From: a virus
DNA length: 50,856 nt
Direction: 5' to 3' (one strand)
Virus record (IMG/VR): IMGVR_UViG_3300033233_000013
Span: 1-50,856 of that record
Part shown: in pieces, positions 1-36,152 of the stretch
How positions within the stretch are numbered: the first letter of the stretch is position 1
Layout: every line of letters begins with the position of its first letter
Notes under the pieces: model-generated
What the model saw: only the letters and a program-made list of their open reading frames with translations
The model's database searches: none
Told to the model about the DNA's origin: nothing
Made by a program: the position numbers and the translations under genes

Positions 1-36
1 CTCGACGGGCTCCGTGGGCGGGATCTTGTCGTCCAT
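1..36 (-). CDS. Truncated CDS, first 12 codons only
   Basis: The minus strand has an ATG at 36-34 that opens a frame running off the window edge (MDDKIPPTEPVE...). A purine-rich AAAGGGGG lies about 7 bases upstream of the ATG, a good ribosome-binding site. The product cannot be identified from 12 residues. It is the next gene downstream of the repeat array on the same strand as the Nop/IS110-like gene. Confidence 0.5.
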   Translation of the reverse strand, partial: MDDKIPPTEPVE

Positions 37-56
37 CGCCTCACCCCCTTTCGTCC

Positions 57-626
57 GATCGCTTCCGCGATACGGGTGCTCTCGTCACCTTCGGCTCGCT
101 CGTGACGCTGCGGTGTGCCAAACTCCTCCATCCCGGCTCGCTGTTGGTGATCGGTGCTCTCGCGTTCTCGGCTCGCTTGCGGTATGCGTCATGCAATTCA
201 CCTCCCCGGCTCGCTGCTGCGCATGGGGTGCTGCTCCTCCTTTTCGGCTCGCTGCTGATGTGGCGGTGCTCGTTGACATCCCGGGCTCGCTTCGGATGAG
301 CGGCGCTCTTCCATCCCTCCGGCTCGCTGTTGAAGTGGTGGTGCCCTGAACGTTCCCGGCTCGCTTCTCTGGGTCGGTGCTCTCGGCATGGACAGGCTCG
401 CTTGGTCTTTCCGGTTCCCTTGCGATGCGCGTGGCTCGCTCGTACGTGGGCGGTGCCCTTCACATCTTCGGCTCGCTGATCCGCGAATGGTGCTCTTCAA
501 CCTCGGGGCTCGCTTGATACAGGCGGTGGCGCCTTCGTCTTTAGTGGCTCGCTTCAGTCCCTCGGTGCCCTTCGATTAACCGGCTCGCTTGAGATTCTTT
601 GGTTCTCTATTTTCCGTTGGCTCGCC
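57..626 (-). repeat. TIGR-like guide array, left (3') half
   Basis: On the plus strand the 8-mer GGCTCGCT recurs at 93, 135, 170, 208, 246, 284, 321, 358, 395, 433, 470, 507, 546 and 582, with GGCTCGCC at 619 and a decayed copy near 57. Spacing is 35-42 bp, mostly 37-38. Midway between most copies is a second motif, GGTGCTCT or GGTGCCCT (75, 153, 376, 452, 489, 564; variants at 227, 265, 302, 340, 413, 601). The two motifs are separated by non-repeated stretches of mostly 10-11 bp. On the minus strand, the coding strand of the adjacent gene, the motifs read AGCGAGCC and AGRGCACC. Alternating edge and loop repeats with two short spacers per unit of about 37 nt match the published TIGR array design. 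The last copy ends one base before the stop codon (plus 627-629) of the Nop/IS110-like gene. Transcription direction is inferred. Confidence 0.8.
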
Positions 627-2027
627 CTAGGCGCGATTCGGCACCGGGACGCGGTGCGTGTCGGCGTGATGTTGGATCGCGATCGGGTACGGGGCGGGCG
701 CCTTCTCGCCGTGGAGCGTCTCGTAGGCGACCTCGAACCAGTGCGCGAGGAAGATCTTGGTCGCCCACCGCATCGCGCGTGCGCGGATCTGGCCGTCGGG
801 GATCCGGCCCTCGCTGTACGCCTTGTAGGCGGCCTTCGATTTGTCGAAGCGCTTCCCGGACGCGAGCTGCTTCTCCGCGTACGGGCGGTTGTAGCCCGCC
901 GCGTTCCGTTGCTGCTCGTAGAGCTTCCGCTGCGCGTAGAGCTTCCCATAGAAGTCGGTCGGCCGGTTTTGACTCTTCTCGAAGCTCGCCCCGATCTTGT
1001 ACGCGAGCACTTTCATCTCGAGGCTATACGGCGGCCGCGAGAGGACCTTGATCAGCGCCGTCGTCGCGACCTCGGGACCGTCCTCGCCGTAGGTGCCGTG
1101 CGCGAGCTCGAGGAGCCGCGCCGCCGGCCGGTGGACCTGCGCGGCGATCGTCGCGAGCTGCTCGCCCGTCACTGTCGCCGCCTTCCCGACGACGTCGCGG
1201 ACGAGCGCGTGCGCTTTGTCTTTTCCGAGCCACTCGACATCGGGATTGAGGCCGCAAAAAGACCAAATGTGCCCCGCACTTCGGATGTCGTGGCCGCCCG
1301 TCATCGCCCGCCAGTCGTGCGCGAGCGGATGCCCCTCGGCATGAAACGTCGCCGTCACCTGGCGCGAGGAGGCGCGCACCGCCGCGCAGAGGGCCGCGAT
1401 CGCGTCCTCGCCTGCGCCGATCGGAAAGACCTCGGCCCCGCTCGCCCCGACGCCGACGGCGAACGTGAGACCGCCCGGCTCGACGAGCACGCTGAGCGCG
1501 TTCCCGGCGATGCCATGGGCGTGCGCGGTAAAGGTCGCGAGCAGCGTGTGCTCGGCATCGCGGAGGTGGAACTGCGCCGGCTTCTGCAAGCGGAGCCGCG
1601 CGAGGAGCCCCGCCGCGAGGATGGGCCCGATGCCGGTGATCGAGCGACTCCACCGGCCGACCGGATGCGCATCGGTGAAGCGCTCCATCGCGCCCTGGAT
1701 CTCCTGCTCGAGTCCGGCGAGCGTCATGTAGATCCACGCGAGGAGCGCGCTCGGCTCGCCGCCCTCACTCGCGAGCCGCACCTGGCTCTGCGAGCGGATG
1801 CGGTACTCCTGGAGCTGGTAGTAGAGGTCGACGACGTAGCGCACCTCGTCGACGGTGAGGACGGCGGCCGACGCCTTTACGTCGGCGGCGAGTTTCGTGA
1901 GCGGCGGCATCCCGCCCTCGGCGGCGACCTTCCGCAGCTCGCGCCGCGATGGTCGTTTCGGTTTGTCTTTCGCCGCGCGCGCCGTCACGGTCGCGTGCGC
2001 GGCGACGGTCTCGGTCGTGGTCTCCAT
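627..2027 (-). CDS. Nop/IS110-C-terminal-like protein, probable Tas protein of a TIGR-Tas system
   Basis: A 466-aa protein. Residues 128-145 (SITGIGPILAAGLLAR) form a helix-hairpin-helix-like segment and residues 248-262 contain GHIWSFCGLNP. Both resemble the C-terminal domain of IS110/IS116/IS902 transposases (Transposase_20), which is structurally related to the Nop domain. A basic, Tyr/Arg-rich tail follows (about 348-435: FYGKLYAQRKLYEQQ, then ARAMRWATKIF). I see no N-terminal DEDD RuvC-like domain of true IS110 recombinases and no HNH or RuvC motifs, so it looks like a nuclease-free Tas protein. In TIGR-Tas systems the Nop domain binds short dual-spacer RNAs made from the neighbouring array and directs them to DNA. 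Repeat arrays abut both ends: the stop is one base from an edge repeat and the ATG is 20 bp from the other half. AAAGGAGC at about 2034-2041 is the ribosome-binding site. Function is inferred from family and context. Confidence 0.75.
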   Translation of the reverse strand: METTTETVAAHATVTARAAKDKPKRPSRRELRKVAAEGGMPPLTKLAADVKASAAVLTVDEVRYVVDLYYQLQEYRIRSQSQVRLASEGGEPSALLAWIYMTLAGLEQEIQGAMERFTDAHPVGRWSRSITGIGPILAAGLLARLRLQKPAQFHLRDAEHTLLATFTAHAHGIAGNALSVLVEPGGLTFAVGVGASGAEVFPIGAGEDAIAALCAAVRASSRQVTATFHAEGHPLAHDWRAMTGGHDIRSAGHIWSFCGLNPDVEWLGKDKAHALVRDVVGKAATVTGEQLATIAAQVHRPAARLLELAHGTYGEDGPEVATTALIKVLSRPPYSLEMKVLAYKIGASFEKSQNRPTDFYGKLYAQRKLYEQQRNAAGYNRPYAEKQLASGKRFDKSKAAYKAYSEGRIPDGQIRARAMRWATKIFLAHWFEVAYETLHGEKAPAPYPIAIQHHADTHRVPVPNRA

Positions 2028-2047
2028 CCCCCCGCTCCTTTCAGCGT

Positions 2048-2283
2048 GGCTCGCTCAGCCTGTCGTCGGGCATATCCTCACCTCGGGCTCGCTCAGGTCT
2101 TGTGGTGCACGGTCATTCCGATGGGCTCGCTGCTTCGATCATGGTGCGGCTCTCAGCTTCTCGGCTCGCTTGCGTCGGACGTGGTGATTCGCTTTCCAAG
2201 GCTCGCTTCCTCACGATGGGTGCCACTGCAGCTTCGGGGCTCGCTTCGACGAAAGGTTCCACGTTTGACTTGATTGGCTCATT
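2048..2283 (-). repeat. TIGR-like guide array, right (5') half
   Basis: GGCTCGCT recurs on the plus strand at 2048, 2086, 2124, 2163, 2200 and 2238, with a decayed terminal copy (GGCTCATT) at 2276. Spacing is 37-39 bp, the same as in the left half. The middle motif is present but more degenerate (GGTGCACG 2104, GGTGCGGCTCT 2143, GGTGATTC 2183, GGTGCCAC 2219, GGTTCCAC 2255). The first copy lies just upstream of the ribosome-binding site of the Nop/IS110-like gene, and the terminal copy overlaps the stop codon of the small gene at 2279-2404. The two halves therefore look like one array interrupted by the protein gene. Confidence 0.75.
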
Positions 2284-2404
2284 CGTTGTCCGACGACTGC
2301 TCGATCGGCGCATCCTCCGGTGTCCACGCCTGCCGCGCCTCGTGCACGATGAGCGCGAGCACGGCGACGAGGAGCACGAGAAACAGGATGTCGCGCGCCC
2401 TCAC
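2279..2404 (-). CDS. Small single-pass membrane peptide
   Basis: A 41-aa product starting at a GTG that overlaps the TGA of the upstream secreted-protein gene (GTGA). Residues 5-20 are hydrophobic (ILFLVLLVAVLALIV), followed by an acidic, Glu/Asp-rich tail. The translational coupling and membrane segment support a real gene. No function is recognised. Its stop codon lies inside the terminal, decayed repeat of the guide array. Confidence 0.6.
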   Translation of the reverse strand: MRARDILFLVLLVAVLALIVHEARQAWTPEDAPIEQSSDNE

Positions 2405-2844
2405 GGCATCACCTCGAGCGGCCACGCATCCAGGTGGAATCGCGCCGCGGGCTCGAGCGCTTCCGCGAAGCATTGCAGCGGGCCCGGCGCCACGAACGAC
2501 ATGCCCGTCATGCCCCCGGGACTGAAGAGCGAGAGCAGATGCGTCTGATCGAGGCCATTGTCCCCGACGACGCCGAGGTAGACGTGGATCTTGCTGTCTC
2601 CGTCGTTCGTCACCTCGCACATCAGCATCTCGCACGGCGTGCCGTCGGCGTACTGCCCGCAGACGACATCGTTCGGGTTGCAGACGCGGGCGCTGTCGTC
2701 GCGGACGCAGCGGTGCGACTGGCAGGTCCCGAGGGTGTACGCCACGTCGGACACGAGCGCGTCCGCGTGGGCGGCGACCGCGGCGCTGAGTACCGCCGCG
2801 GTCGCCAGTCCCACTCCCATCCTCCCCTTCCACGACATTCGCAT
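2401..2844 (-). CDS. Secreted protein of unknown function
   Basis: A 147-aa product with a Sec signal peptide (basic start, hydrophobic core around residues 9-25, then AHADA, a likely cleavage site). The mature part has six or seven cysteines, suggesting disulfides outside the cytoplasm. No known family is recognised. It sits between the helicase-loader gene and the array, on the same strand. It may be a superinfection or envelope factor, but this is speculation. Confidence 0.7.
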   Translation of the reverse strand: MRMSWKGRMGVGLATAAVLSAAVAAHADALVSDVAYTLGTCQSHRCVRDDSARVCNPNDVVCGQYADGTPCEMLMCEVTNDGDSKIHVYLGVVGDNGLDQTHLLSLFSPGGMTGMSFVAPGPLQCFAEALEPAARFHLDAWPLEVMP

Positions 2845-2869
2845 GACCTCCGCCTTCCCCCGCCCCCGT

Positions 2870-3562
2870 TTAGCCGCGTCGACGATCGGGACCGACGAGC
2901 GTGAGCGCGTCCCAGGCCCCGAGCCGACTCGCGACGCTCATCCCGTAGAGGGCCCCGAGCTCCGCCTCGCTCTTGGTCGTGGTCGCGATCGTCGGCCGGT
3001 ACGACCCGTTCCGCACGTCGAGAATCCGGTGAAGCCGCGCGATCACGGGCTCGGTGACCCGGCCCTCGTTCCCGAGGTCCTCGATCACGAGCAGCACGCG
3101 CGTCGTGTAGTAGGCGAGCGCCGACGACGTGGTCTCGCGCGCGCCCTCGCGCATCGTCTCCCAGATCCGATCGAGGAGGGCCCCCATCGAGACGACGGCA
3201 ACGAGCTCGACGCCGGCGTCCAGCATCGCGCGCCAGAGCGTCGCGGCGGCGAGGTGCGATTTCCCGACGCCGGGGTCGCCCTTGATGAGCAGGCCGCGCG
3301 CATCGGCTGGACGCTTCAAGAACGCGAGCGCCTTCGCCTGCACGTCGGCTGGAAAGTCCGTGAGCTCGGCCCGCATGTGTTCCGGGAGGACGCCCGCGCG
3401 CCGCAGCAGGCTCACGCGCTGGAGCTCGCGCCGGCGCCGGTCGCGCGCGCGCTCGGCCGCGCGGTCGGTCGCGTCAGCCGGTGCGGGCATCGCGACGACG
3501 GCGCCGCTCGTCATCGCGGCGGGCTTCGGCGGTCCAGTCGGTGTCGGTGCGGACGGGGGCAT
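2870..3562 (-). CDS. DnaC/IstB-like helicase loader ATPase
   Basis: A 230-aa AAA+ ATPase. Walker A is GDPGVGKSH at about residues 95-103 and Walker B is VLLVIEDLGNE at about 156-166. The region around residues 205-220 (MSVASRL) resembles the sensor-2/arginine area of DnaC-type proteins. Such phage proteins load the replicative helicase on origin DNA. The start at 3562 has AGGAAAGG upstream and overlaps the upstream replication gene by 89 bp; internal Met codons at residues 17 and 25 are alternatives. The pairing with the upstream winged-helix-like protein is the usual phage helicase-loading module. No replicative helicase is visible, so the host one may be used. Confidence 0.85.
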   Translation of the reverse strand: MPPSAPTPTGPPKPAAMTSGAVVAMPAPADATDRAAERARDRRRRELQRVSLLRRAGVLPEHMRAELTDFPADVQAKALAFLKRPADARGLLIKGDPGVGKSHLAAATLWRAMLDAGVELVAVVSMGALLDRIWETMREGARETTSSALAYYTTRVLLVIEDLGNEGRVTEPVIARLHRILDVRNGSYRPTIATTTKSEAELGALYGMSVASRLGAWDALTLVGPDRRRG

Positions 3563-4385
3563 GGGTCGTGCCTTTCCTGGGCGGCATCCTGCCGGGCACC
3601 CAGATGGCGTACGTTTCGCGGAACCGCCGCGGCGTCTTGAACTCGGGCCGGTCGGTGTTCAGGTCGGGGTCGAGGTAGCGGTCGAGGCGCGCGAGGATCT
3701 CGGCATTGGACTCGCCCGCGTTGCGGAGCGGGTCGAGCGCGTCGGCCTGGAGCGCCAGGAGATCGACGAGGCCGAGCGCGCGCTCCCACACGGTGACGAA
3801 CGGCTGATCTTGCTCCGGGACGTGGCCGCGGCGTCGTGGCGTCGCGTTTGCTACGCGCGCGGGTAGATCGGGAGAAGAATCCAAAGACGATGGGATGGGA
3901 GGGGATGAGATACGCGCGAGCGGCGAGCCGCAGCGGTCCGCGGCGGACGGCGGCGAGTCGCCGCGATCCACAGGTGTGGACACATCGGTGGTCGCAAGCG
4001 GATCCGGGTACTTGGGCTTCGTCTCCCGCAAGCGCTGCTCGCTCGCCCAGTTGACGAAGTAGCCGTAGCGCTCCCCACCGACCTCGTAGAGGACGACCAG
4101 GGTCTCGCCCGCGAGCTCGTCGAGCCACGCGTGGATGCGCGCCATCGTGAAGCGCGCCGCGAGCTCCGGGTCGCCGATCACCCGCGGAAAGCAGGCGGCG
4201 ACGACGAGGCCCGGCTCGGCCTGGAAGCGGCCGGCGTTGTCGGCGACGGCGTGGAGACGCCAGTAGAGCCGCTCGGCGTCGCCGCTCACGCGGGTGAGGT
4301 TTCGGTTGGCACAGCACGACTCGCGGATCATCCGATCTGGCACGCACCCTCCCCCACCGGCCGACGCGTCGACGGCCCCCGTCAT
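3474..4385 (-). CDS. Replisome-organizer/replication-initiation-like protein
   Basis: About 303 aa. The N-terminal part (DRMIRESCC, then DAERLYWRLHAVADNAGRF) resembles the winged-helix N-terminal domain of phage replisome organizers and DnaD-like initiators. A low-complexity Ser/Pro linker follows (about residues 145-190), then a basic C-terminal region. I place the start at 4385 because that ATG overlaps the preceding TGA (ATGA); an in-frame ATG at 4394 is possible. Adjacency to the DnaC-like loader supports a role in origin recognition. No iterons were found within the gene by eye. Confidence 0.65.
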   Translation of the reverse strand: MTGAVDASAGGGGCVPDRMIRESCCANRNLTRVSGDAERLYWRLHAVADNAGRFQAEPGLVVAACFPRVIGDPELAARFTMARIHAWLDELAGETLVVLYEVGGERYGYFVNWASEQRLRETKPKYPDPLATTDVSTPVDRGDSPPSAADRCGSPLARISSPPIPSSLDSSPDLPARVANATPRRRGHVPEQDQPFVTVWERALGLVDLLALQADALDPLRNAGESNAEILARLDRYLDPDLNTDRPEFKTPRRFRETYAIWVPGRMPPRKGTTHAPVRTDTDWTAEARRDDERRRRRDARTG

Positions 4386-4666
4386 GATCGCCATCCCCCG
4401 CTTGCGACGAGGGCGAGCGGCGGCGGATCGCCGAAGGGGCGACCGTAGAGAACGAACCGGCCGAGCGGCGACCCGGTGGTCGCGACCTCACGCCGGACGA
4501 ACGGAATCGCCTCCCGCGCCTGCGCGAGCTCGTTCCCGGTGAGCAGCATCGCCGCGAGCTCGAGCCGCGCGCCCATCGTCAGGCGTGCGAAGAGCGGGTG
4601 ATCGAGCGCCTGAAAGTCGAGCGCCGCGAGCCGTGCCGCCAGCTGTGTCGTCGCTCCCGAATCCAT
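4382..4666 (-). CDS. Small conserved-looking protein of unknown function
   Basis: A 94-aa product. I chose the ATG at 4666 because GAGGGG lies 6 bases upstream; the open frame continues to 4792 but that extension is Arg/Pro-rich and unlike a protein. The sequence is helical and leucine/alanine-rich (ALDFQALDHPLFARLTMG). It ends in an ATGA overlap with the replication gene, so it is probably part of the replication operon. No function is recognised. Confidence 0.6.
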   Translation of the reverse strand: MDSGATTQLAARLAALDFQALDHPLFARLTMGARLELAAMLLTGNELAQAREAIPFVRREVATTGSPLGRFVLYGRPFGDPPPLALVASGGWRS

Positions 4667-4870
4667 CAACCGCCCCTCGTTGCCCGCCACCTGTGCTGGC
4701 GTCTGTGCTAGACCGCGCGTCGCCGGCAGCACCGGGGGATCGGCCGCGCACGGTGCCCGCGGGGACTCCCCCCCGCGACCGCGTGACGACACCCCCGATT
4801 CTCGCGTACAACCCCGCGCACCCTCACGGCCACGCTCCTACGCCACGTCTACCAGCGTATCACGAACCCC
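4667..4870. other. Intergenic region, no gene supported
   Basis: About 200 bp between two minus-strand genes. The open frames here are short GC-driven shadows. I saw no convincing promoter, although a transcription start for the replication genes could lie here. Confidence 0.4.
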
Positions 4871-5110
4871 TCACCCGGGCGATGTGCTCCCGGGTGTGCT
4901 ACTTCGATCCGGCTCGTCGAGGCAGACGATCTGATCGATGCGCTCCAGCACGTAGTCCTCAATGGCCAGCGCTCGGCGACCATCGCCGTGATAGAGGGTT
5001 ACGCCGTCCTGCGAATAGACCATCTGTCCGCATTCATCACACGGGCCCAACTCGACCACGCTGTCCCTTGCCGCGCTGTCGGCCATGGCCGTATCCCGCC
5101 CGTCATCCAC
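4871..5110 (-). CDS. Small protein with one CxxC pair
   Basis: A 79-aa acidic product with a CDECG pair at about residues 24-28 followed by QMVYSQDGVTLYHGDG, which looks like half of a zinc ribbon. It lies between the integrase and the replication genes on the same strand. Not recognised. An inverted repeat overlaps its 3' end. Confidence 0.55.
   Translation of the reverse strand: MDDGRDTAMADSAARDSVVELGPCDECGQMVYSQDGVTLYHGDGRRALAIEDYVLERIDQIVCLDEPDRSSTPGSTSPG
4872..4896. terminator. Inverted repeat at the 3' end of the 79-aa gene
   Basis: CACCCGGG and CCCGGGTG form a perfect 8-bp stem with a 9-base loop. It overlaps the last codons and stop of the minus-strand gene. There is no T-run after it, so it is at best an attenuator or RNA 3'-end stabiliser. 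Confidence 0.3.
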
Positions 5111-5168
5111 GTGCTCGCCCGTATCGTCCTTGGCAAAAACAAAGTCAAGGGCATAGTGCGGCCACGGA

Positions 5169-6326
5169 TCAGCGGCGTTGTTTTTTCTGATGACCTGCGC
5201 CGTTTCGGCGCAGCGGGGCGACCTTCGCCGGCTTCCGCGCGCCGTCCTGCACGTACGTCGTGAGCGCCCGCATCGCGTCGCCGATGTCCGTCGTGTCGAC
5301 GATGTTGTAGCGCGTGAACATCGCCCGCGAGAGATGCCCGCTGATTTTCATGATGACGTCCTCGGCGACGCCGGCGCGACGGAGGTTCCGCGTGGAGGAG
5401 CGTCGCATGTCGTGGAATTCCAAGTCGGGGCGGCCGATCGCCGCGCACGCGGCCGCCCACCAGCGATCGCCGTCCATCCGGTGGCCGGTGCGGTGGAAGA
5501 CGTACGGGCAGTCGAGGCGGCGGAGCCGACGGCGCTTCGCCACGATCGCGAGGAGCGGCCCGGCGATCTCGAGCTCGCGCGCCGTCCGGTTCTTGCTGCG
5601 GACCGGCGGGAGCCGGACGAGGGTCACGTCAACCGCCCCCGCCGCCGTTATCCGCCGCGCCTCGCTGATCTCGGTCCAGGGCAGGCCGAGCACCTCTTCG
5701 CGCCGCCACCCCGAGAGGTAGGCGAACGCAACCGCATCGGCGAAGTCGGCGCAGAGGCCGACGAGCGCCGCATGGAGCGGCCAGAACGTCGCGGGCTCGA
5801 TGAAGATCTGCCGCGCGTTCTCGACCCGCAGCCGCGGGAGGTGCGGCACGTGCCCCGGGCGGAGGAGGCCGTCCTGGACGGCGAGCGCGTAGGCGGTGTG
5901 GAGGTAGCCGAGCGCGAGCGCGATCGTGCCGTCCTTGTAGGCGGCGGTGCGCCGCTCGAGGATGAAGCGCCGCGCAAGATCGGGCGTCACGTCGAGTGCG
6001 CGGTAGGGCTCGAAAAACACGAGGTGGCTCCGCCGGAGCGAGTGGACGCTTTGGCGGGTCGCCTCCTTCGCGCCCGCGACCTCGAGGCTCGTCTCATAGC
6101 GCGTGAGGAGATCCCGGACGGTCAGGCGCTCGGCGCGGACGGGCGCGCGCCCCGTCGCGAGCGCCTCGGCGAGCCGTTCGATGAGCAGGCCCTGCGCGAT
6201 CTGCCGATCACGGCTCCGCGTGCTGACCCGGATCTGTTGCCCGCCGACCGAGTAGTCGAGATAGTAGATGCCGCCACGCTGGTAGAGCGTCCCGCTACCG
6301 CGACGACTATTCCGACGACGGGGCAT
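5169..6326 (-). CDS. int: Tyrosine recombinase (phage integrase)
   Basis: A 385-aa tyrosine recombinase. The N-terminal part (YYLDYSVGGQQIRVST) is the AP2-like arm-binding fold, followed by a core-binding helical region (about 65-160). Catalytic residues are visible: Arg208 in SGWRREEVLG, Lys245 in SKNRTAR, His305 and Arg308 in FHDMRRS, His331 in SGHLS, and Tyr340 in TRYNI. All are present, so it should be active. I prefer the ATG at 6326 (MPRRRNSRRGSG); an ATG at 6437 would add 37 residues unlike the family. The gene marks a temperate phage or other integrative element. I could not identify an attachment site. Confidence 0.9.
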   Translation of the reverse strand: MPRRRNSRRGSGTLYQRGGIYYLDYSVGGQQIRVSTRSRDRQIAQGLLIERLAEALATGRAPVRAERLTVRDLLTRYETSLEVAGAKEATRQSVHSLRRSHLVFFEPYRALDVTPDLARRFILERRTAAYKDGTIALALGYLHTAYALAVQDGLLRPGHVPHLPRLRVENARQIFIEPATFWPLHAALVGLCADFADAVAFAYLSGWRREEVLGLPWTEISEARRITAAGAVDVTLVRLPPVRSKNRTARELEIAGPLLAIVAKRRRLRRLDCPYVFHRTGHRMDGDRWWAAACAAIGRPDLEFHDMRRSSTRNLRRAGVAEDVIMKISGHLSRAMFTRYNIVDTTDIGDAMRALTTYVQDGARKPAKVAPLRRNGAGHQKKQRR

Positions 6327-6544
6327 GCGATGGCCGAGGTCGCCGCCAGTGTAGCGAGACGACGCCCTCCCCACATCCCGCGAAGTCTTGAGCGCATCTG
6401 CTGTGGCGTCGATATCCCGTGGCGTTCGGCGGCCCACGCCTCGAGCGCCGGGAGGGTGATGCGGATCGTCGCGCCCTCGCCGCGGGCGGGATCAAGGGGC
6501 CGGGTCAGCCGCGGATCAGCATGGCGCCACGCGCGCCGGCGGCG

Positions 6545-6781
6545 CTAGGAACTCCGGCGGCGGCGGGCGGGACGCGGGGCCGGCGCGACATCCTGCTCCG
6601 CTTCGCGGAGCCCGAGACTCCGCAGCCAGGTCGACGTATCGAGATGGCGGCGCGCCGCGGCGGCGACGAGCGTGCTCTTCTCCTCGTCGTTCACCTGCAC
6701 CTTGATGTTCTTGTCGCGCTTGCCGCCTCGCGAGACCTGTCGTGGGGCCAAGACCCCACCGCGTAGCACTCGCATCGCCAT
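6545..6781 (-). CDS. Ribbon-helix-helix-like DNA-binding protein
   Basis: A 78-aa basic protein with KNIKVQVNDEEKSTLVAAAA followed by TSTWLRSLGL, the strand-helix-helix pattern of ribbon-helix-helix regulators and mobilisation accessory proteins. GGGAAAGG upstream of the ATG at 6781 supports this start; the open frame to 6907 runs through the regulatory region. It is divergent from the plus-strand early operon and next to the integrase. It could be an autoregulated repressor acting on the palindromes at 6807-6893, or a recombination directionality factor. Confidence 0.65.
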   Translation of the reverse strand: MAMRVLRGGVLAPRQVSRGGKRDKNIKVQVNDEEKSTLVAAAARRHLDTSTWLRSLGLREAEQDVAPAPRPARRRRSS

Positions 6782-6806
6782 TCCGCAAACCTTTCCCGTG
6801 GGCCGT

Positions 6807-6893
6807 GGCCTTAATACGGCCGTGCGGCAGGGATTGCAAGACCGAAGTGCAGGCGGCGCGCTTTTCCGCTTGACTCCCTGGCCGTAATACGGC
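6807..6893. promoter_or_regulatory. Divergent regulatory region with two related palindromes
   Basis: Two related sites lie between divergent genes: GGCCTTAATACGGCC at 6807-6821 and the perfect odd palindrome GCCGTAATACGGC at 6881-6893, sharing TAATACGGC. For the minus strand, a TATTAA -10 (6811-6816) and a TTGCAA -35 (6834-6839) with a 17-bp gap overlap the first site. For the plus strand, TTGACT (6870-6875) is a -35 candidate near the second site. The arrangement suggests operators controlling both the ribbon-helix-helix gene and the early operon. Confidence 0.5.
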
Positions 6894-6899
6894 AGTGGT

Positions 6900-7190
6900 A
6901 TGGCCATGCCAAACAGGGGAATTGCACCAACCTCGACGGGCGCCCCCGCCCTCGCCTACTGGCGGGTCGAGGACGACGGCACGCTCTTTTGTGACGTCAC
7001 CGTCTGGACGCCGCTCGCCGAGCCGCGGGACGCGATCGCGATCGCGCGCGACTTGGCCGAGGGCAAGGTCGACCGGCCGGCGCAGTTCGCGTGGCTGCAG
7101 GGTGAGGTGCGCGTGGCCGCCGCCGGGCACTACTTCGTGCGGGTCCGTCCCCGCCACGAGGCGCAGCCGCAGGAGGGAGAGTCGGCATGA
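6900..7190 (+). CDS. Small protein of unknown function, first gene of early operon
   Basis: A 96-aa product (start at 6900, or at the ATG at 6906). The middle contains LAYWRVEDDGTLFCDVTVWTP. Not recognised. It is the first gene of the plus-strand operon and overlaps the next gene by 4 bp (ATGA). Confidence 0.55.
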   Translation: MAMPNRGIAPTSTGAPALAYWRVEDDGTLFCDVTVWTPLAEPRDAIAIARDLAEGKVDRPAQFAWLQGEVRVAAAGHYFVRVRPRHEAQPQEGESA

Positions 7191-7543
7191 GGGAGCACCG
7201 GACACTGCGATACGGGGCGGCTCTCGTGCTCGTATTGCTCGCGATCGGTTGCGCACAAGCTCCACCAGCGCCCGAGCCTTCTCCGACAGAGATCGCCGGG
7301 GCGGACAGCGAGCACTACGTGTTCCAGGTGCCGTCAACACCCGCCACGCCGCTCCCGCGCTGGACGCCGGCGGCGATCGGGACCCTGTACTGCTTCAAGC
7401 TGTTAGGGACATTCGGCTCCTGCCCGGAAGGTGCCCTCACCATGGTGTTCGGCCGGTTCGGTGAGGATCGGGAGCAATACGCGTGTTTCGAGGTGGTGCC
7501 ATGCGGTCCCTACGCGGACGGCGAGGAGGGAGATCGGCCATGA
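7187..7543 (+). CDS. Lipoprotein of unknown function
   Basis: A 118-aa product with a lipoprotein signal: basic MREHRTLR, hydrophobic AALVLVLLAIG, and a lipobox cysteine at about residue 22, followed by a Pro-rich segment. Four more cysteines lie in the C-terminal half. A phage lipoprotein expressed early could act in superinfection exclusion. This is inference from location only. Confidence 0.6.
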   Translation: MREHRTLRYGAALVLVLLAIGCAQAPPAPEPSPTEIAGADSEHYVFQVPSTPATPLPRWTPAAIGTLYCFKLLGTFGSCPEGALTMVFGRFGEDREQYACFEVVPCGPYADGEEGDRP

Positions 7544-7917
7544 GCGACACCGCAGCGAGCTATGGCGCCGTCGGCACCGAGCCGGCGCTCTTTCGCGCGC
7601 AGCGGCTCGCCCGTGAGCTGCTTGCGGAGACCCGTGCGACGCCGATCGAGATCAACGCGTTCGTCGACGCGATCATCGCGGCCACTGTCGAGGTCGCCGT
7701 CGCCTGCAGTGAGCGACGACTCGTCGCAATCGAGGCCCGCCAGCCCGGCGAGGAGCGGCACACGCTCGCGCTCATGGCGGCAACGCTGGGGTCGGCGTTC
7801 TTTGCTGGAACTGCAGCGGAGAGCGTCGCTCAGGCCCGCGTGATCCTCGCCGCTGTCGAGGATGCGCTCGGCATCGTGCGGCTGACCGAGCCGGCGAACG
7901 ACGAGGCCCCGCGATGA
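7540..7917 (+). CDS. Alanine-rich helical protein, unknown
   Basis: A 125-aa protein. Its ATG overlaps the preceding stop (ATGA) and follows GAGGAGGGAG. It is largely alpha-helical and Ala-rich (FVDAIIAATVEVAVACSERR). Not recognised. Confidence 0.6.
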   Translation: MSDTAASYGAVGTEPALFRAQRLARELLAETRATPIEINAFVDAIIAATVEVAVACSERRLVAIEARQPGEERHTLALMAATLGSAFFAGTAAESVAQARVILAAVEDALGIVRLTEPANDEAPR

Positions 7918-7976
7918 CGCTCACCCTCTGCTGCTTGGCGGCGGTCGCGTTCGTCCATTGGATGCTCACGTGCTGA
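7914..7976 (+). CDS. Very short hydrophobic peptide (20 aa)
   Basis: An ATG in an ATGA overlap with the preceding gene opens a 20-codon frame (MTLTLCCLAAVAFVHW...). It ends inside the start region of the next gene. It may be a real membrane peptide or simply a coupling leader. Confidence 0.35.
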   Translation: MTLTLCCLAAVAFVHWMLTC

Positions 7977-8266
7977 CCATTTTCGAGTACCCGCTCGTCG
8001 GGGCGCAGCACTTCACGGAATGGACGGTGGAGCTTCCGGCGGGCGCGGAGCTGCTACATTTCGGCGTCGTCGCTGACGCGCCCCACCTCTGGGCGCGCGT
8101 GGACCTCGCGCTGCCCGTCGTCCGGCGGACGTTCTACGTCTTCACGACCGGCGACACGCTTCCTTCCGAGCGCATCCTCGAGCACCGCGCGACCGTGCAC
8201 ACGCCGCTCTTGCGGAACGCGTGGTGGGACGCGTGGCACATCTTCGAGGAGGTGGCCCGTGGCTGA
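7970..8266 (+). CDS. Small conserved phage protein (DUF7352-like)
   Basis: About 98 aa from a GTG at 7970, giving LTIFEYPLVG at the start; an in-frame ATG at 7958 is the alternative. The pattern (T-I-F-x-Y-P-L near the start, then LPAGAELLHFGV and later FTTGDTLP) matches a widespread family of small phage proteins of unknown function. It overlaps its neighbours on both sides. Confidence 0.6.
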   Translation: MLTIFEYPLVGAQHFTEWTVELPAGAELLHFGVVADAPHLWARVDLALPVVRRTFYVFTTGDTLPSERILEHRATVHTPLLRNAWWDAWHIFEEVARG

Positions 8267-8438
8267 CATCCAGCTCGTCCAGAACGTCGCCCCCCACTCG
8301 ATCGAAATCAGCCGCAACGCCAAGGGCGAAGCGAGCTTTTGCATAAAAATCTACGCCGCGGACGAGAAGGACGCGGCCGAGCGCGCGCTGGCGGTCGCCC
8401 GCCAAGTACGCCGTGCGCTCCAGGAGGAACCGCTGTGA
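8259..8438 (+). CDS. Small phage protein of unknown function
   Basis: A 59-aa product from a GTG at 8259 that overlaps the previous gene by 8 bp. VAPHSIEISRNAKGEASFCIKIY, in part, resembles a small phage family found next to recombination genes. It is followed by a GTG-initiated gene overlapping its stop (GTGA). Confidence 0.6.
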   Translation: MADIQLVQNVAPHSIEISRNAKGEASFCIKIYAADEKDAAERALAVARQVRRALQEEPL

Positions 8439-9397
8439 GTGAACCTGCACGATCCCATGAGGTCGCCATCCCCGAGAACAGCACCCTGCCCGCGCCCGGC
8501 ACCACGGCTGCGCCAGCCGTGCTCGACAACGTCTTCGACATCAAGGGCGCACAGGCCCGCCTCGCGCAGCTGCGGGAGTTCTTCAAGGTCGTGATGGTCG
8601 AGGGCGAAGACTACGGCGTCATCCCGGGCACCGAGAAGAAGTCGCTCTGGAAGCCCGGCGCCGAGAAGCTCTGCGAGTTCTACCGCATCATCCAGCGCCC
8701 GCACGTCACGCATCGCGTGGAGGACTGGACGAAGCCGTTTTTCCACTACGAGTTCTCGATGGATCTCCTCTCGCGCGACACCGGGCAGATCGTCGGCACC
8801 GGCGTCGGGAGCTGCAACTCGATGGAGGCCCGCTATCGCTGGCGGAACGGCCAGCGGCGGTGCCCCGAGTGTGGTCAGGGGTCGATCTTCAAGAGCAAGC
8901 GCGAGGGCGAGGGCTTCTACTGCTGGGCGAAGAAGGGCGGGTGCGGCGCGCAGTTCGACGCCGACGACGAGGGCATCACGAGCCAGGAGTTCGGTCGCGT
9001 CGAGAACGACGACGTGCATTCGCTCGTGAACACGATCTTGAAGATGGGCAAGAAGCGGTCGCTCGTCGACGCGGTCGTGAGCGTCACCCGGAGTGCCGGG
9101 CTCCTCATCGAGGAGGGCGATGACGACGACGATGACGACGAGGGGCGCGGGCGTGGCGGGAACCCGCGCGGCGGTGGCGCGCGGGGCGGCGCCGCCGACA
9201 CGGTGAGCGAGGCCGAGCGCAAGCGCGTCGCCGACGCGTTCGCCAAGGCCGGGCACAAGTGGCCCGAGGTCGTCGCGTGGGCGACCCGCGTCCACAAGAT
9301 TGACCTCTCGACCCAAGGCATCCCGAAGGCGCTCTACGAGGCGATCCTGAAACGCGTCTCCGATCCGACGCCGCTCGCGCAGCAGGATCTCGTGTAG
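8435..9397 (+). CDS. Zinc-ribbon phage protein linked to recombination genes
   Basis: A 320-aa product from the GTG at 8435 in a GTGA overlap. The N-terminal third contains DYGVIPGTEKKSLWKPGAEKL, a pattern shared by phage and plasmid proteins often encoded beside recombination nucleases. A four-cysteine zinc ribbon lies at about residues 143-171 (CPECG and CWAKKGGCG). A run of acidic residues (about 229-236) is followed by Gly/Arg-rich sequence and a helical C-terminus. It probably acts on DNA with the SbcD/SbcC-like pair immediately downstream, for example as a single-strand annealing or mediator protein. The biochemical activity is not established here. Confidence 0.6.
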   Translation: MSEPARSHEVAIPENSTLPAPGTTAAPAVLDNVFDIKGAQARLAQLREFFKVVMVEGEDYGVIPGTEKKSLWKPGAEKLCEFYRIIQRPHVTHRVEDWTKPFFHYEFSMDLLSRDTGQIVGTGVGSCNSMEARYRWRNGQRRCPECGQGSIFKSKREGEGFYCWAKKGGCGAQFDADDEGITSQEFGRVENDDVHSLVNTILKMGKKRSLVDAVVSVTRSAGLLIEEGDDDDDDDEGRGRGGNPRGGGARGGAADTVSEAERKRVADAFAKAGHKWPEVVAWATRVHKIDLSTQGIPKALYEAILKRVSDPTPLAQQDLV

Positions 9398-9401
9398 CGC
9401 C

Positions 9402-10601
9402 GTGCTCCGCGTCTGCCATTCCGGCGACTGGCACGTCCCCGAGACGGGCCGGTTCGTCGACACGCTCCGGTGCCTCGACGCGATGATCGATGACGGCATC
9501 GCGCAGGGCACCGGGCTCTGGCTCGTCGGCGGCGACCTCGGCGGGACGACGGTGCCCTACCGCCATCCGCCGAAGGTCCGCAATGCGATCGCCGATCGGC
9601 TGCAGCGACAAGCGGCGGTGGCGCCGGTTCTCGTGATCGGCGGGAACCACGACGTCGACGAGGACATCGCGATCTACGGTCGTCTGAAGGCGGCGCACCC
9701 GATCGTGGTCGTGACCGACGTGCGGATGGTGGAGATCGCCGGCGCGGCAATCTTGTGCTTCCCGTACCCCTGGAAGAATCGGTGGGTCGCCCCGCACGCG
9801 CATCTCCCGATCGAGGAGCAGGACCGCGCGATCGAGGCTGATCTGCGGAAGCTCCTCGACGGCTGGGCCACCGAGGTCGCGATCGCGCGCGCCGCTGGCA
9901 TCCCGACGGTCTTCCTTGGCCACGTGACGATCGGCGGCTGCGCGATCGCCGGCGGTGAGGTGATGCCGCCGGGCCGAGAGATCAGTCTTGCGACCGCCGA
10001 CTTGGAAGCGCTCGGCTGTGACTTCTCCGCGCTCTCGCACATCCACCTCTGCCAGGAAATGAAGGCCGGCTCCGGCATCTGGTACGCCGGGAGCCCTGAT
10101 CGGTCCAACTTTGGGGAGCACGACGAGAAAGGCTTTCTGATCGCGGACGTCGAATCCGGCCGTCCGCCGCTGGTGCACCGCCGGCTCACGCCCGCACGTC
10201 CCTTCGTCACGATCCGCGCCGCGTGGAAGCAGGACGCCGACGGCGCGTGGGCGTGGGAGTCGGCCAATCCCGCCGTGCATGTGGACGTCAGCACGGCCGA
10301 GGTGCGCCTGCAGATAGAGGTTCCCGAGGAGGCGGCGGGCACCTGCCCCGTCGGCGAGCTCGTCGAGACGCTCAAGGAAGCCGGCGCGCACGAGGTGAAG
10401 ATCGATCGCCGCGTGATCCCGAAGACGCGGATCCGCTCCGAGGCGATCGTCACCGCGAAGACCACGGCCGAGAAGTGCGCGGCCTACTGGTCGACGCTCG
10501 GCCCGGCGGCGCCGACGGACGAGCAGCGCGAACGGGCACTCGTGAAGCTCGCGGAGCTGGAGACGCCGACGCCGGTGCGCGCCGAAGAGGCCGCCGCATG
10601 A
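9402..10601 (+). CDS. sbcD: SbcD/Mre11-like exonuclease subunit
   Basis: A 399-aa calcineurin-like phosphoesterase. Metal-binding motifs appear in order: GDWH near residue 8, GGDLGG near 43, GGNHDVD near 74, GHVT near 168 and SHIH near 207. It starts at a GTG 4 bp after the previous stop. Related proteins (bacterial SbcD, phage T4 gp47) form a nuclease with an SMC-like ATPase that processes DNA ends and is needed in phage recombination. The SbcC-like partner follows directly. Confidence 0.85.
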   Translation: MLRVCHSGDWHVPETGRFVDTLRCLDAMIDDGIAQGTGLWLVGGDLGGTTVPYRHPPKVRNAIADRLQRQAAVAPVLVIGGNHDVDEDIAIYGRLKAAHPIVVVTDVRMVEIAGAAILCFPYPWKNRWVAPHAHLPIEEQDRAIEADLRKLLDGWATEVAIARAAGIPTVFLGHVTIGGCAIAGGEVMPPGREISLATADLEALGCDFSALSHIHLCQEMKAGSGIWYAGSPDRSNFGEHDEKGFLIADVESGRPPLVHRRLTPARPFVTIRAAWKQDADGAWAWESANPAVHVDVSTAEVRLQIEVPEEAAGTCPVGELVETLKEAGAHEVKIDRRVIPKTRIRSEAIVTAKTTAEKCAAYWSTLGPAAPTDEQRERALVKLAELETPTPVRAEEAAA

Positions 10602-10646
10602 CGCCCCGCCTTGACGGTCGGACCGTATAACGCGCATACAAGGCCC

Positions 10647-13280
10647 ATGATCCTCCACGCACTGCGCTTCAAGGGCATCAGCGTCGCGTTCCCCGAACGC
10701 GAGGTCGCGCTCGACTTCGACACCATGCCCGGGCCGTTGGTCGCGATCGTCGGCGAGAATGGGGTCGGCAAGACGCACCTCCTGGAATTGGCAGGCCCAG
10801 GCACCGTCTATCGAGAATTTTCGAGCTATCGCGAGGCGTTCCTCGACCACGTGGCGCCGGGCGTCCGCGACGCGTTTGCCGAGCTCACGTTCACGATCCA
10901 CGACACGCGCTACCAGTTGACGGTCCAGGCCGACCCGGAATCCGCCGGCGGCCGAGGAAAGACGGAGGCCCGCCTCAATCAATGGGCCGAGGCGGGCTCT
11001 CCGTCGTCCTGGACACCAATCGCGGGCCCGCTCGTCGGTGCCGTCGACGAGGCGCTCGCGAGGCTCTTCCCTCCGAAGGAGCTCTTCCTCGCGAGCGTGT
11101 TCGCCTGTCAGGCGACGGCGTTCGGATCGAAGGGCGGCACGCGGAGTTTCTTCGCGCTCGAGAAGGCGGCGCGGAAGGATCTCTTCGCGGCGCTCCTCGG
11201 CTTGGAGCACCTGCAGCACTATGCCGAGGCCTCGGCCGAGCGCGCGAAGCGTGTGCTGGTCGACCTCGAGCGCGTCCGTCAGGACTGCGGGCCGGTCGAG
11301 CGCCGCGCGGCGCGACTCGCCGAGCTCGTGATCCTGATCGGCACCGCGTCCGAGACGCGCGCCGACGCCGAGGAGGCGGAAGCTGCCGCCCGCGCCACGC
11401 ACGACACGGCTACCACCGCGCTCGCGACCGCGCGCGCCGCGCAGACGAGCGTCGGGGCTGAGGTCGCGCGCCTGGAGGCCGAACGGACACGGCTCACGAA
11501 GGCCCGCGACGGCGCGCAGCAGCGGGTCGGCGCGCTCACCGTGACGCGCGACCGGGCCGCGGCGCTCCTCGCCGATCGCGACACGATCGAAGCAGCCGCC
11601 GCGCGCGTCCGCGTGATCGACGGCGAACTCGCGGCGCTCGACACGACCGAGCGCGAGGCCCGTGTCGCCCTGGAGCCGATCGTCGGCTCGGTCGCGATGC
11701 TGACCGCGCAGCGCCAGCAGTTGGTCGAGACGGCGGCACGGCTGCGGACAGCGCACGCGGAGGCCGTCGCGGCCCAGACGCGCGTCGATGCGGCGCGGGA
11801 TCTCGAGGCCGAGGCGACGGCGCAGCGCGCGAAGGCTGAGGAGCTTGCGGCGGCGCTCGCGGCCGCGAGCCGCGAGGTGCTCGTCGAGGCGGAGGCGGCC
11901 GAGGCAACCACGCTCACGCGGCGGCGAGTGCTCACGGCCTCGCGCGACGAACTGGCGCCGCGAACCGGGCTCCTCGCGACCGTGCCCGGCGTCCCGGAAT
12001 GCGCGCTCTGTCCCCTCACCGAAGACGCCCGCGCCGCCGCGGGCCGGCTGGCAATCGTGGATGCCGAGCTCGCGGCGCTCCCGGTGATCGACGGCACCCC
12101 GGCGAAGCGGGCGCTCGCTGAGTACCGGGCGCGCGAGGCCGCCCATGGAGCGATTCAGCGCTGGCTCACGGCGCAGGCTCCTGCCCTCGCGCGCGTCGAG
12201 TTGGATCGCCCCGTGGGGGCGCAGGCGGCGGAGGTCCAGGCCGAGCTCGACCGGGTGATCGCCGACGGGGCGACGATGCGGGCAGCGCTCGACGCCAAGA
12301 CCGCCGAGCAGCGGACGGCGCAAGAGCAGCTCGCACGGATCGGGCTAGAGCGCCGGGACCTCACGGCCGAGCGCACGCGCCTCGTGCCCGACGCCGCGCG
12401 TGCCGAGGGGATCGCGGCCGCGGTTGCCGAGCAGGCGCAGACCGAGACGGCGCTCGCCGAGGCGCAGGCGCAGGTGGTAGACGCCACGACCGCCCTTGCA
12501 GCGCTCCCGCCCGCGCCCGACGTCGCCGGTGCTGCCGCGGCGGTCCAGGCGGCCGACGCCGCGGCCGCCACGGCGGGGCAGACGCTCCGCGTACGCGAGG
12601 CGGCGTGCCAGGCGGCCACCGAGGCGTGGGCGCGGCTCGACGGCGAGCGCGGCGCGCTCGGCGATCCCGCAGCCGAGCTCGCGGCGCTCCGCGCGCGCGA
12701 GGCGGCGCTCGTCACGGCCGCCGCCGACTGGGCGCTCCTCGAGCGGACGCTCGGGCGCGACGGCGTCCAGGCCATTTCCATTGACGCAGCGGGCCCCGCC
12801 GTGACGGCACGCGCCAACGATCTCCTCTATGCCTGCTACGGGCCGCGCTTTCAGATCGCGCTCGAGACGACGGCACCGAAGGCGGATGGCCGCGGGCAGA
12901 AGGAAGTGTTCGAGGTCCGCATCCTCGACAGCGAGGCCGGGCGCGGCGAGGCGACCAAGGGCTCGGGCGGCGAGATGGTGCTCCTCGACGAGGCGCTCCG
13001 CCTCGCCCTCGCGCTGTTCAACGCCGAGCAGTCGGGGTTCGAGCTCAGAACATTGTATCGCGACGAGCCCACCGGGGCGCTCTCGCCGGCGAACGCGGAG
13101 CGCTACCTCGCGATGCTCCGACGCGCGATGGACGTCGGGTCATTCGACAGGTGTCTTTTCATCGCGCACCAGCGCGAGGTCTTCGAGCAGGCCGATCACC
13201 GGCTCTTCCTCCACGGTGGCCAGGTCTACGAGGACGTGCGCGCGTTCAACGCCGCCCTGGAGGCGGCCGACGCCGCGTGA
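10647..13280 (+). CDS. sbcC: SbcC/Rad50-like SMC ATPase subunit
   Basis: An 877-aa protein. Walker A is GENGVGKT at residues 36-43. Long Ala/Glu/Arg-rich coiled coils flank a zinc hook CALC at about 452-455. The ABC signature region KGSGGEM is at about 771 and a Walker B-like YRDEPTGALS at about 803-812. This matches SbcC and phage T4 gp46, which regulate the partner nuclease and tether DNA ends. I chose the ATG at 10647 because the frame then begins MILHALRFKGI, typical for this family. The Walker B strand (LRTLYRDEP) is less hydrophobic than usual. Confidence 0.87.
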   Translation: MILHALRFKGISVAFPEREVALDFDTMPGPLVAIVGENGVGKTHLLELAGPGTVYREFSSYREAFLDHVAPGVRDAFAELTFTIHDTRYQLTVQADPESAGGRGKTEARLNQWAEAGSPSSWTPIAGPLVGAVDEALARLFPPKELFLASVFACQATAFGSKGGTRSFFALEKAARKDLFAALLGLEHLQHYAEASAERAKRVLVDLERVRQDCGPVERRAARLAELVILIGTASETRADAEEAEAAARATHDTATTALATARAAQTSVGAEVARLEAERTRLTKARDGAQQRVGALTVTRDRAAALLADRDTIEAAAARVRVIDGELAALDTTEREARVALEPIVGSVAMLTAQRQQLVETAARLRTAHAEAVAAQTRVDAARDLEAEATAQRAKAEELAAALAAASREVLVEAEAAEATTLTRRRVLTASRDELAPRTGLLATVPGVPECALCPLTEDARAAAGRLAIVDAELAALPVIDGTPAKRALAEYRAREAAHGAIQRWLTAQAPALARVELDRPVGAQAAEVQAELDRVIADGATMRAALDAKTAEQRTAQEQLARIGLERRDLTAERTRLVPDAARAEGIAAAVAEQAQTETALAEAQAQVVDATTALAALPPAPDVAGAAAAVQAADAAAATAGQTLRVREAACQAATEAWARLDGERGALGDPAAELAALRAREAALVTAAADWALLERTLGRDGVQAISIDAAGPAVTARANDLLYACYGPRFQIALETTAPKADGRGQKEVFEVRILDSEAGRGEATKGSGGEMVLLDEALRLALALFNAEQSGFELRTLYRDEPTGALSPANAERYLAMLRRAMDVGSFDRCLFIAHQREVFEQADHRLFLHGGQVYEDVRAFNAALEAADAA

Positions 13281-35100: not shown

Positions 35101-36152
35101 GGCTCGGGGCGGAGCGGCCGGAAGACGTAGCTCCCGTGCGCGTCGGTATCGAGCTCCGCCAGCACCCCGCGGAAGGTCTCGTTCTGGTCGACGTTCGCCA
35201 GGCGCTCCGCATCGAGCGCGCCTTCGGTCTTCCCGACGTTGATCGCGTAGACGTTCGGGATGAGGGGTTGCACGAGGTCGCTCGCGCGGTCCCACTGGTA
35301 GACCGCGAAGACGCGGCGCTCGAGCTCGGTCGGCCCGGGCGGGTCGTTCGACGTGTCGGTCGTGCGGAGCGTCGCCGTCCAGGCCTCGCGGTAGGCGGCC
35401 GGGTGGCCGCTCAGGGGATCGATGAGGCCGGGATCCGCCACGTGATCGACGAGCGTCCGCGTGAACTCGACGTAGACCGCCGAGATGCCCGTCGTGAGGT
35501 GGGGGTACGTGAGCGTCGCCCCCGCGACGCGGAGCATCGCCCCCGCCACGGGAATGATGAGGTCGGCGATCGTCAGCGTGTCGCCCGCGACGATGGGCGC
35601 GTTATCGCCGTACGTGACCGAGACGGTCCAGCTGTTCCCACCGGTCACGAACCCGTTGGCGTTCACGAAATAGAGGACGAGGCCGAGAAAGCCGACCGCA
35701 TGGCCGTAGGTCGCGGGATCCGCCTGCGCCGCCGCGAGCGAGGGCGCGATGGCGGTGATCGGGTACGGCGTCTCGCTCACCTCCGGGCGATCCGAGCCGC
35801 TGGAGCGCCACGCGAACGTCGCCGTCCCCGCCGGGCCGCCGGTCGTGATCTTGATCGTATAGACGAGGCTCTCGAGGCCGATGTACTTCCCGGCTGAGCC
35901 GAGGCTGTCGGCGCCGATGTTCACGCCTGGCGTCGGCTGGCCGATCGTGCCGCCCGCCTGGTACAGCACCGCACCTTCGCGGAGGAGCGTCCGGCGGAAG
36001 ATCGCCTCGTCGTATTGCTGGATACGCTGCAGGTCGATGAGATCGTAGTCGGCGAGCACCTCATCGCCGCGCGCGAGGACGGTCTTGTAGCCCTTCCGCG
36101 GATCGAACGATGTCGGCCGCGTCACGCCGGCATTCTCGAGTGCATTCCCCAT
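32178..36152 (-). CDS. DUF4815-like tail/baseplate protein
   Basis: A 1324-aa protein. The N-terminal 350 residues (GYKTVLARGDEVLADYDL, AVYQWDRASDLVQPLIP) match DUF4815-type phage proteins linked to tails or baseplates. A beta-rich middle follows (TYEQLGELADIVFQLQRN near 715), then putative adhesin-like segments to the C-terminus. It is likely a long tail fibre or baseplate spoke. It lies between the tail-collar-like protein and the fibre with the sugar-binding module. Confidence 0.7.
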   Translation of the reverse strand: MGNALENAGVTRPTSFDPRKGYKTVLARGDEVLADYDLIDLQRIQQYDEAIFRRTLLREGAVLYQAGGTIGQPTPGVNIGADSLGSAGKYIGLESLVYTIKITTGGPAGTATFAWRSSGSDRPEVSETPYPITAIAPSLAAAQADPATYGHAVGFLGLVLYFVNANGFVTGGNSWTVSVTYGDNAPIVAGDTLTIADLIIPVAGAMLRVAGATLTYPHLTTGISAVYVEFTRTLVDHVADPGLIDPLSGHPAAYREAWTATLRTTDTSNDPPGPTELERRVFAVYQWDRASDLVQPLIPNVYAINVGKTEGALDAERLANVDQNETFRGVLAELDTDAHGSYVFRPLRPEPRATISGNVASPGKLRLAVPPIGARVEGVLVTFPTATELEVDQALETGSIHDEPFTYTAAADPFPLTKASLYPIAATIPKLTATVQVGTGTGGSGSGYEAVTRGAGAYDALSKNPVTALVTISSAQGGGGTVYVQGTNYDLQTESGLKKVHWITGAPSGGATYYVCYQYQKTMVQATDFELTGAGAITFATLAGDNPVEGTQPQVDYNYYLPRHDLIILRPNSTLAVLRGIPAEDPQPPPLPRFALPYAVVQVAPNSGQAVIVAHGNERWTYEQLGELADIVFQLQRNVAQQELLNQARARLGGLATASFVDTFAEDFSTLRYADEAFNVGGQAYEGTIDTEAGEFTLPFLQALPALTKIAAPAGETDARVGEQFWTLPFADELAIASDKWSRARPVNAYTDFRVPPPLVRLGPSQDFFNDTTVTTSSQTRVIQNATRRSRTPARRVPVLTVGGVDIMTQATEVAALRMRQLQVAVAGFHFVPLEKVRVRFAGKAVPFLADAPSVQVPAGLGNGATDAVYANNVGIANTVGGEVNGHFVVPSDTPAGTVAVECWGDQGVPNAVWPADYTLRASVPFSSVGTVRQVAVEIVTTEFPLPIPRRHGRSGGGVMLDPLAQSFLFGVPRMISKVDVPLAAKPTGTQGVPLICEMRATDRSGDASTPAAHVLASRTLEQRDCEVGDASSNVLVWPDPVMCDPFEFRALVLRTPSPDYEVFVAELGGPDRVAGGFITQQQIPDGILMDSVNNADWTSFQGADLRCKVWVAKATAGEAHLYFARLTSGVNGVPADLTALLVNPDQVVPDGTSIDWQYAVDGLALTAPGKVWITFLPHNVTEFAAFTQTLDVRAVLKTTDPYVLPSIARSNGSLHVQANKANGKYISKEVGLTVARTQLDGVVEFVKPSGDADPALFVSLDGGATFTTVGALTVENTDVDGTVRAKFSTGLTSGKRLRLRVDLAAGNKARRPRIKSLTAWPIP

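What the first reader, a model, noticed from the sequence alone, without database searches (positions are those of the whole stretch)
57..2283. TIGR-Tas-like RNA-guided locus in a phage: dual-spacer repeat array around a Nop/IS110-like gene
Seen: 8-bp motifs GGCTCGCT and GGTGCYCT alternate with variable 10-11-bp spacers, period 37-38 bp, about 15 units on one side and 6 on the other side of a 466-aa gene. The protein has the ITGIGP...LAAGLLA and GHIWSFCGLNP segments of the IS110 C-terminal/Nop-like fold. Known: TIGR-Tas systems (tandem interspaced guide RNA arrays processed to about 36-nt RNAs with two short spacers, plus a Nop-domain Tas protein) occur in phages and parasitic bacteria and are structurally related to box C/D snoRNPs and IS110. 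Inference: this is a TIGR-Tas system with roughly 20 guides.
Basis: partly seen in the sequence, partly recalled or inferred. Interest (0 to 1): 0.95.

Follow-up and report, generated by a model that had tools for sequence, protein, structure and literature searches.

The report
Phage RNA-guided TIGR-Tas system variant
A phage known only from sequence carries a recently described kind of RNA-guided DNA-binding system (TIGR-Tas), with about 20 paired guide sequences around one protein gene; the system is of a known kind, but this protein has an unusual extra piece that resembles part of the phage's own tail sheath.

Summary
On the minus strand, 20 complete units (edge AGCGAGCC, variable stretch, loop mostly ending in CACC, variable stretch) flank an intact 466-aa gene, 14 downstream and 6 upstream. 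The protein passes NCBI's TIGR-Tas model (127 bits, cut-off 100); a profile of it and its relatives hits the solved TasR and TasH structures, and its predicted fold matches TasH. At least 571 viral-contig stretches encode relatives, many beside arrays with these same repeats. It has no recognisable nuclease (TasA type): most likely a guide-RNA-directed DNA binder that blocks rather than cuts. No spacer target was found above chance. What is new is the architecture: a ~100-aa domain, absent from 173 relatives covering the region, interrupts the Nop domain and is homologous to part of the same phage's tail sheath protein (39 bits; best of 5000 shuffles 9). Other lineages carry Cys-rich inserts in the same loop, an insertion hot spot. 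The array is atypical too: longest mean unit of 106 arrays compared (37.7 against a usual 36 nt) and loose loop repeats, which may reflect adaptation or early decay.

The parts
627..2027 (-). tas gene (TasA-type, 466 aa): coiled coil plus Nop/IS110-C-terminal-like RNA-binding domain, no recognisable nuclease domain
   Evidence: NCBIfam NF052498 127.1 bits, cut-off 100; PDB profile hits 9mty, 21kl; AF2 model pLDDT 77, core above 90, Foldseek top TasH; codon-position GC about 0.6-0.8/0.44-0.6/0.9 through most of the frame
1287..1589 (-). Insert 1 (aa ~147-247): domain homologous to residues ~123-240 of the same phage's tail sheath protein (L122:4955-6490 minus = G000:55811-57346)
   Evidence: phmmer domain i-E 4.5e-9; 39 bits vs best 9.3 bits in 5000 shuffles; GIGP-to-GHIW stretch is 120 aa here vs 22 aa in 160 of 180 relatives
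1041..1226 (-). Insert 2 (aa ~268-329): ~60-aa mostly helical insertion shared by a subset of longer Tas proteins
   Evidence: 71-113 vs 23 residues between GHIW and the conserved K..L segment in about 47 of 180 relatives (alignment A2)
75..626 (-). Downstream TIGR array: 15 edge repeats, 14 complete dual-spacer units plus a terminal edge-spacer A-loop
2048..2283 (-). Upstream TIGR array: 7 edge repeats, 6 complete units; the last edge ends about 20 nt before the tas start codon; loop repeats degenerate
58..71 (-). ATCGC-GGAA-GCGAT hairpin just after the last loop repeat; no T tract, so not a canonical terminator
   Evidence: sequence; folding of 40-100 not better than shuffles, z -0.65

Best explanation
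A phage-borne TIGR-Tas system with a nuclease-less (TasA-type) effector. Shown here: the dual-repeat array, the Tas identity, the phage context, the absence of a recognisable nuclease, and a tail-sheath-like domain inserted in the Nop domain. Inferred from the studied systems (PMC12045711): the arrays are transcribed with tas, cut within edge repeats into ~37-nt guide RNAs, a Tas dimer binds one guide through the box C/D-like AG...CC motifs of edge and loop, and spacers A and B pair with opposite strands of one ~18-20-bp DNA site, bending it. Without a nuclease the complex most likely acts by occupancy: blocking transcription or replication of competing mobile elements or of a host locus. The sheath-like insert most likely works as an accessory DNA-, RNA- or protein-contact module at a loop that tolerates insertions in several lineages.
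For: NCBIfam TIGR_Tas above cut-off in P0001, and a match at E<=0.001 in all 42 Tas rows scanned; profile hits to TasR, TasH and more weakly IS621; fold match to TasH; array counts far above shuffles; 1895 units of the same repeat family in related loci with a strict G-AGCGAGCC-R-8nt-G-AGAGNACC-R-8nt plan, control on reversed sequence 71; Tas homologs next to the arrays; no self-targets in the 115-kb phage, as expected if the target is foreign; insert homology to the sheath; recurrent Cys-rich inserts at the same loop.
Against: No small-RNA data. The array is irregular (mean 37.72, sd 1.41, 6% of intervals at 36 nt, against a median of 89% in 106 arrays), and only 45% of its units hold a canonical AGRGNRCC loop. 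P0001 departs from 11 of 62 strongly conserved positions and sits on a long branch. No spacer target was found. The structure of the insert could not be predicted (pLDDT 39).
Confidence: 0.85

Rival explanations
1. A decaying TIGR-Tas remnant: the gene took in a foreign domain, lost function, and the array is drifting.
For: Irregular unit lengths and loose loops, worst in the upstream array; long branch; 11 of 62 conserved residues changed.
Against: 466 codons without a stop; codon-position GC signature kept through the insert; 20 of 22 edges letter-perfect; the 16 columns that are invariant in the 45-row alignment include P0001; other apparently intact relatives depart as often (L017 14 of 67, L023 11 of 63).
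Confidence: 0.2
2. An IS110-family RNA-guided transposase with a bridge RNA rather than a Tas system.
For: Pfam Transposase_20 below cut-off (18.6 vs 21.3 bits); NCBIfam transpos_IS110 16.4 bits vs cut-off 140; weak profile match to IS621.
Against: No DEDD/RuvC N-terminal domain found (about 45 aa of basic sequence before the coiled coil); a dual-repeat array is present; the Tas model is passed and the IS110 model failed by far.
Confidence: 0.02
3. The sheath resemblance of insert 1 is an assembly chimera or chance.
For: Only one contig carries it; Pfam and PHROGs do not recognise the insert alone; the low-confidence model gives no structural match.
Against: In frame and 31% identical over ~110 aa, so not a recent chimera; 39 bits vs 9.3 in 5000 shuffles; the only hit among more than 10,000 ORFs lies in the same phage genome; part of the domain lines up in register in another sheath, weakly (L224).
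Confidence: 0.07
4. The effector regulates or assists the phage itself (integration aid, self-gene regulation) rather than acting on other elements.
For: TasA-induced DNA bending has been suggested to aid integrases (PMC12045711); an integrase gene lies 3 kb away (5169-6437).
Against: No spacer pair matches its own 115-kb genome better than shuffled pairs; about 20 different guides are more than one att site would need.
Confidence: 0.12

Closest known systems
TIGR-TasA systems with dual-repeat arrays (Faure et al. 2025, PMC12045711)
   Same: Single Nop-domain protein without nuclease; edge/loop dual-repeat array up- and downstream of the gene; phage location; paired edge and loop motifs.
   Different: Tail-sheath-like domain inserted in the Nop domain; second ~60-aa insertion; unit length 35-42 nt (mean 37.7) instead of ~36; loops looser than edges; no canonical terminator found.
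TaTasR (PDB 9mty) and TasH (PDB 21kl, 9w04)
   Same: Coiled coil and Nop domain; profile and fold match.
   Different: No RuvC or HNH domain at the N-terminus of P0001.
IS110-family recombinases (IS621, ISCro4)
   Same: Homologous C-terminal RNA-binding region.
   Different: No DEDD domain; guide array instead of one bridge RNA.
Phage tail sheath proteins (phrog_279)
   Same: Insert 1 is homologous to an internal domain of the sheath of the same phage.
   Different: Only that domain is present, diverged to 31% identity, inside an RNA-guided protein.

Membership tests
TIGR-Tas (dual-repeat type) | Nop-domain Tas protein | tested here: met
   NF052498 127.1 bits vs cut-off 100; PDB 9mty 5.7e-25, 21kl 3.8e-13; Foldseek TasH probability 1.00
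TIGR-Tas (dual-repeat type) | Array of two alternating 8-12-nt repeats with short (about 9-12-nt) spacers next to tas | tested here: met
   20 complete units; 17 exact pattern matches vs 0.01 expected
TIGR-Tas (dual-repeat type) | Edge and loop carry matching box D / box C motifs | tested here: met
   AG...CC in edges and most loops; same plan in 1443 unique related units. Several loops, mainly upstream, deviate
TIGR-Tas (dual-repeat type) | Constant unit length of about 36 nt (usual, not strictly defining: the paper notes spacers up to 12 nt) | tested here: not met
   Mean 37.72, sd 1.41; the longest mean of 106 arrays
TIGR-Tas (dual-repeat type) | Array processed to ~36-nt tigRNAs bound by Tas | not testable with these tools
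   Needs small-RNA sequencing
TIGR-Tas (dual-repeat type) | Spacers A and B jointly target opposite strands of one DNA site | tested here: inconclusive
   No spacer-pair target above chance in own genome, 1.17 Mb of related loci, or phage records
TIGR-Tas (dual-repeat type) | Array ends in truncated edge and rho-independent terminator (typical) | tested here: inconclusive
   A hairpin at 58-71 follows the last loop, no T tract, fold z -0.65
TasR or TasH nuclease subtypes | N-terminal RuvC or HNH nuclease | tested here: not met
   Only ~45 aa before the coiled coil; no nuclease family in Pfam or NCBIfam
IS110 transposase | IS110 family model and DEDD domain | tested here: not met
   NF033542 16.4 bits vs cut-off 140

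The most novel reading that the evidence does not exclude
The sheath-derived domain lets the Tas-guide complex dock onto the phage's own sheath or tail, so that guide-loaded effectors are carried in the virion and delivered at infection to silence host or resident-prophage DNA.
Probability: 0.05. Interest if true: 0.9.

Novelty: new variant of a known kind. Interest (0 to 1): 0.5.

Why it matters
TIGR-Tas was described only in 2025, and neither the job of its nuclease-less members nor their natural targets are known. This case shows that one loop of the Nop domain accepts whole extra domains: a virion-protein domain here, Cys-rich zinc-finger-like inserts in other lineages. That points to a place where effectors gain new functions. 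The large set of related arrays sharing one repeat (1895 units found with one pattern) also makes target finding and guide rules directly testable.

Tried and rejected
Insert 1 as a degenerate PolA-type 3'-5' exonuclease (my first reading by eye): no Pfam or PDB support, replaced by the sheath homology. One search was run in a wrong frame and is discarded. Spacer targets: all pair orders and gaps over 1702 unique pairs and 1.17 Mb of loci, no excess over shuffled pairs (a slight excess for A.rcB with a 2-nt gap and one mismatch, 38 vs 24 with sd 5.5, one of many orientation and gap tests, not taken as significant). One 20/20 match in a faecal phage, MT835513, E = 5, is chance level. Own genome: none. 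Rfam: nothing in 1-12000. Close relatives of P0001 or of the sheath in phage records, viral contigs and genomes: none by tblastn or exact peptide patterns. A second structure job on the insert with a two-sequence alignment gave no usable model, so its Foldseek result is ignored.

Full report
What is there. The window is the first 50.9 kb of a 114.9-kb virus record with 68.7% G+C. It is a phage: terminase large subunit (phrog_675, 6.5e-66), portal, tail sheath (phrog_279, 1.5e-30), integrase (phrog_1, 1.5e-40), DnaC-like helicase loader and DNA helicase. At its left end, on the minus strand, lies a 466-aa gene (627-2027) with arrays of alternating short repeats on both sides.

The array. The edge repeat AGCGAGCC occurs 20 times exactly inside 93-2245 and twice elsewhere in the window. 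With two edges bearing mismatches there are 15 edges downstream and 7 upstream, giving 14 + 6 complete units and one terminal partial unit. The dual-repeat pattern occurs 17 times against 0.01 expected. In detail the loop repeat is less strict than stated: downstream mostly AGRGCACC, upstream only CACC, ACC or CC after variable letters, and one downstream unit lacks the CC at the expected place.

The protein. Curated NCBIfam model TIGR_Tas_endo: 127.1 bits, cut-off 100. A profile of 45 relatives matches TaTasR (9mty, 5.7e-25), TasH (21kl, 3.8e-13) and more weakly IS621. The AlphaFold2 model has a confident core (pLDDT of at least 90 for 218 residues), and its best structural matches are TasH complexes with probability 1.00, though with E-values of 0.004-0.02 and modest TM-scores, in part because the insert is not modelled. 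No nuclease domain was found, so despite the model's name ('endonuclease') this is a TasA-type protein.

Relatives. Across 1443 unique units of the commonest length the plan is G-AGCGAGCC-R, 8 variable nt, G-AGAGNACC-R, 8 variable nt.

What differs. (1) Insert 1, aa ~147-247. In 160 of 180 relatives the stretch from GIGP to GHIW is 22 residues; here it is 120, and no other relative exceeds 62. The insert is homologous to residues ~123-240 of the tail sheath protein of the same phage (i-E 4.5e-9; 39 bits against at most 9.3 in 5000 shuffles; 31% identity). It keeps the codon-position GC pattern of a coding region. At the same place, relatives L006, L023, L061 and L084 and, separately, L064, L126, L176 and L190 carry Cys-rich inserts of about 27-40 aa, which look like zinc fingers (inference). 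(2) Insert 2, aa ~268-329, is shared with a patchily distributed set of about 47 longer Tas proteins. (3) The array has the longest mean unit of 106 arrays with this edge repeat (37.72; 6% of intervals equal 36 against a median of 89%).

How it most likely works. By analogy with the studied systems (PMC12045711), the arrays are transcribed, cut inside edge repeats, and a Tas dimer binds one guide whose two spacers pair with opposite strands of a single site. Having no nuclease, the complex most likely acts by occupancy and bending, as a roadblock against competing elements or a host locus. Only the anatomy is shown here; processing, binding and target are inferred. The spacers do not match the phage's own genome better than shuffled pairs, and no targets above chance appeared in related loci or phage records. 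The insert is probably an accessory contact module; what it contacts is open.

Functional or decaying? Against decay: intact frame, coding signature, near-perfect edges, key residues kept. For decay: irregular units, loose loops, long branch, 11 of 62 conserved positions changed. I put early decay at about 0.2.

Verdict. As a TIGR-Tas locus this is a new member of a known family; the virion-domain insertion makes it a new variant. That feature rests on one contig and on sequence homology alone.

Noticed in passing
L084/L005/L054 (IMGVR_UViG_3300036834_000189), L003/L021 (3300036791_000379), L008/L018/L022 (3300041409_000460): In several phages arrays with the same repeats lie about 5-50 kb away from tas, sometimes on the other strand (for example clusters at 78-82 kb with tas at 30-31 kb). 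Scattered arrays are not described in the parts of the TIGR-Tas paper I read.
   Followed up: partly
L006:6007-7107 -, L023:642-1667 -, L061:2864-3826 +, L064:8379-9320 +, L126:5977-6894 +, L176:5986-6921 +, L190:5827-6921 +: Cys-rich, zinc-finger-like inserts in the same Nop-domain loop that holds the sheath-like insert here; at least two sequence types in separate branches.
   Followed up: partly
L097:4817-5965 +, L013:761-2242 -, L006:6007-7107 -: The 36-nt unit equals 12 codons, so arrays read through in frame as repetitive ERA/ERT-rich peptides upstream of tas; such long open frames could be mistaken for genes.
   Followed up: no
window 39607-45717 -: A 2036-aa frame with long tracts of a 6-bp CGGCGT-type repeat (39670-39897, 43922-44002, 44545-44806).
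   Followed up: no
window 32178-36152 -: 1324-aa protein matching phrog_877 over almost its whole length (2.6e-128), function unknown.
   Followed up: no
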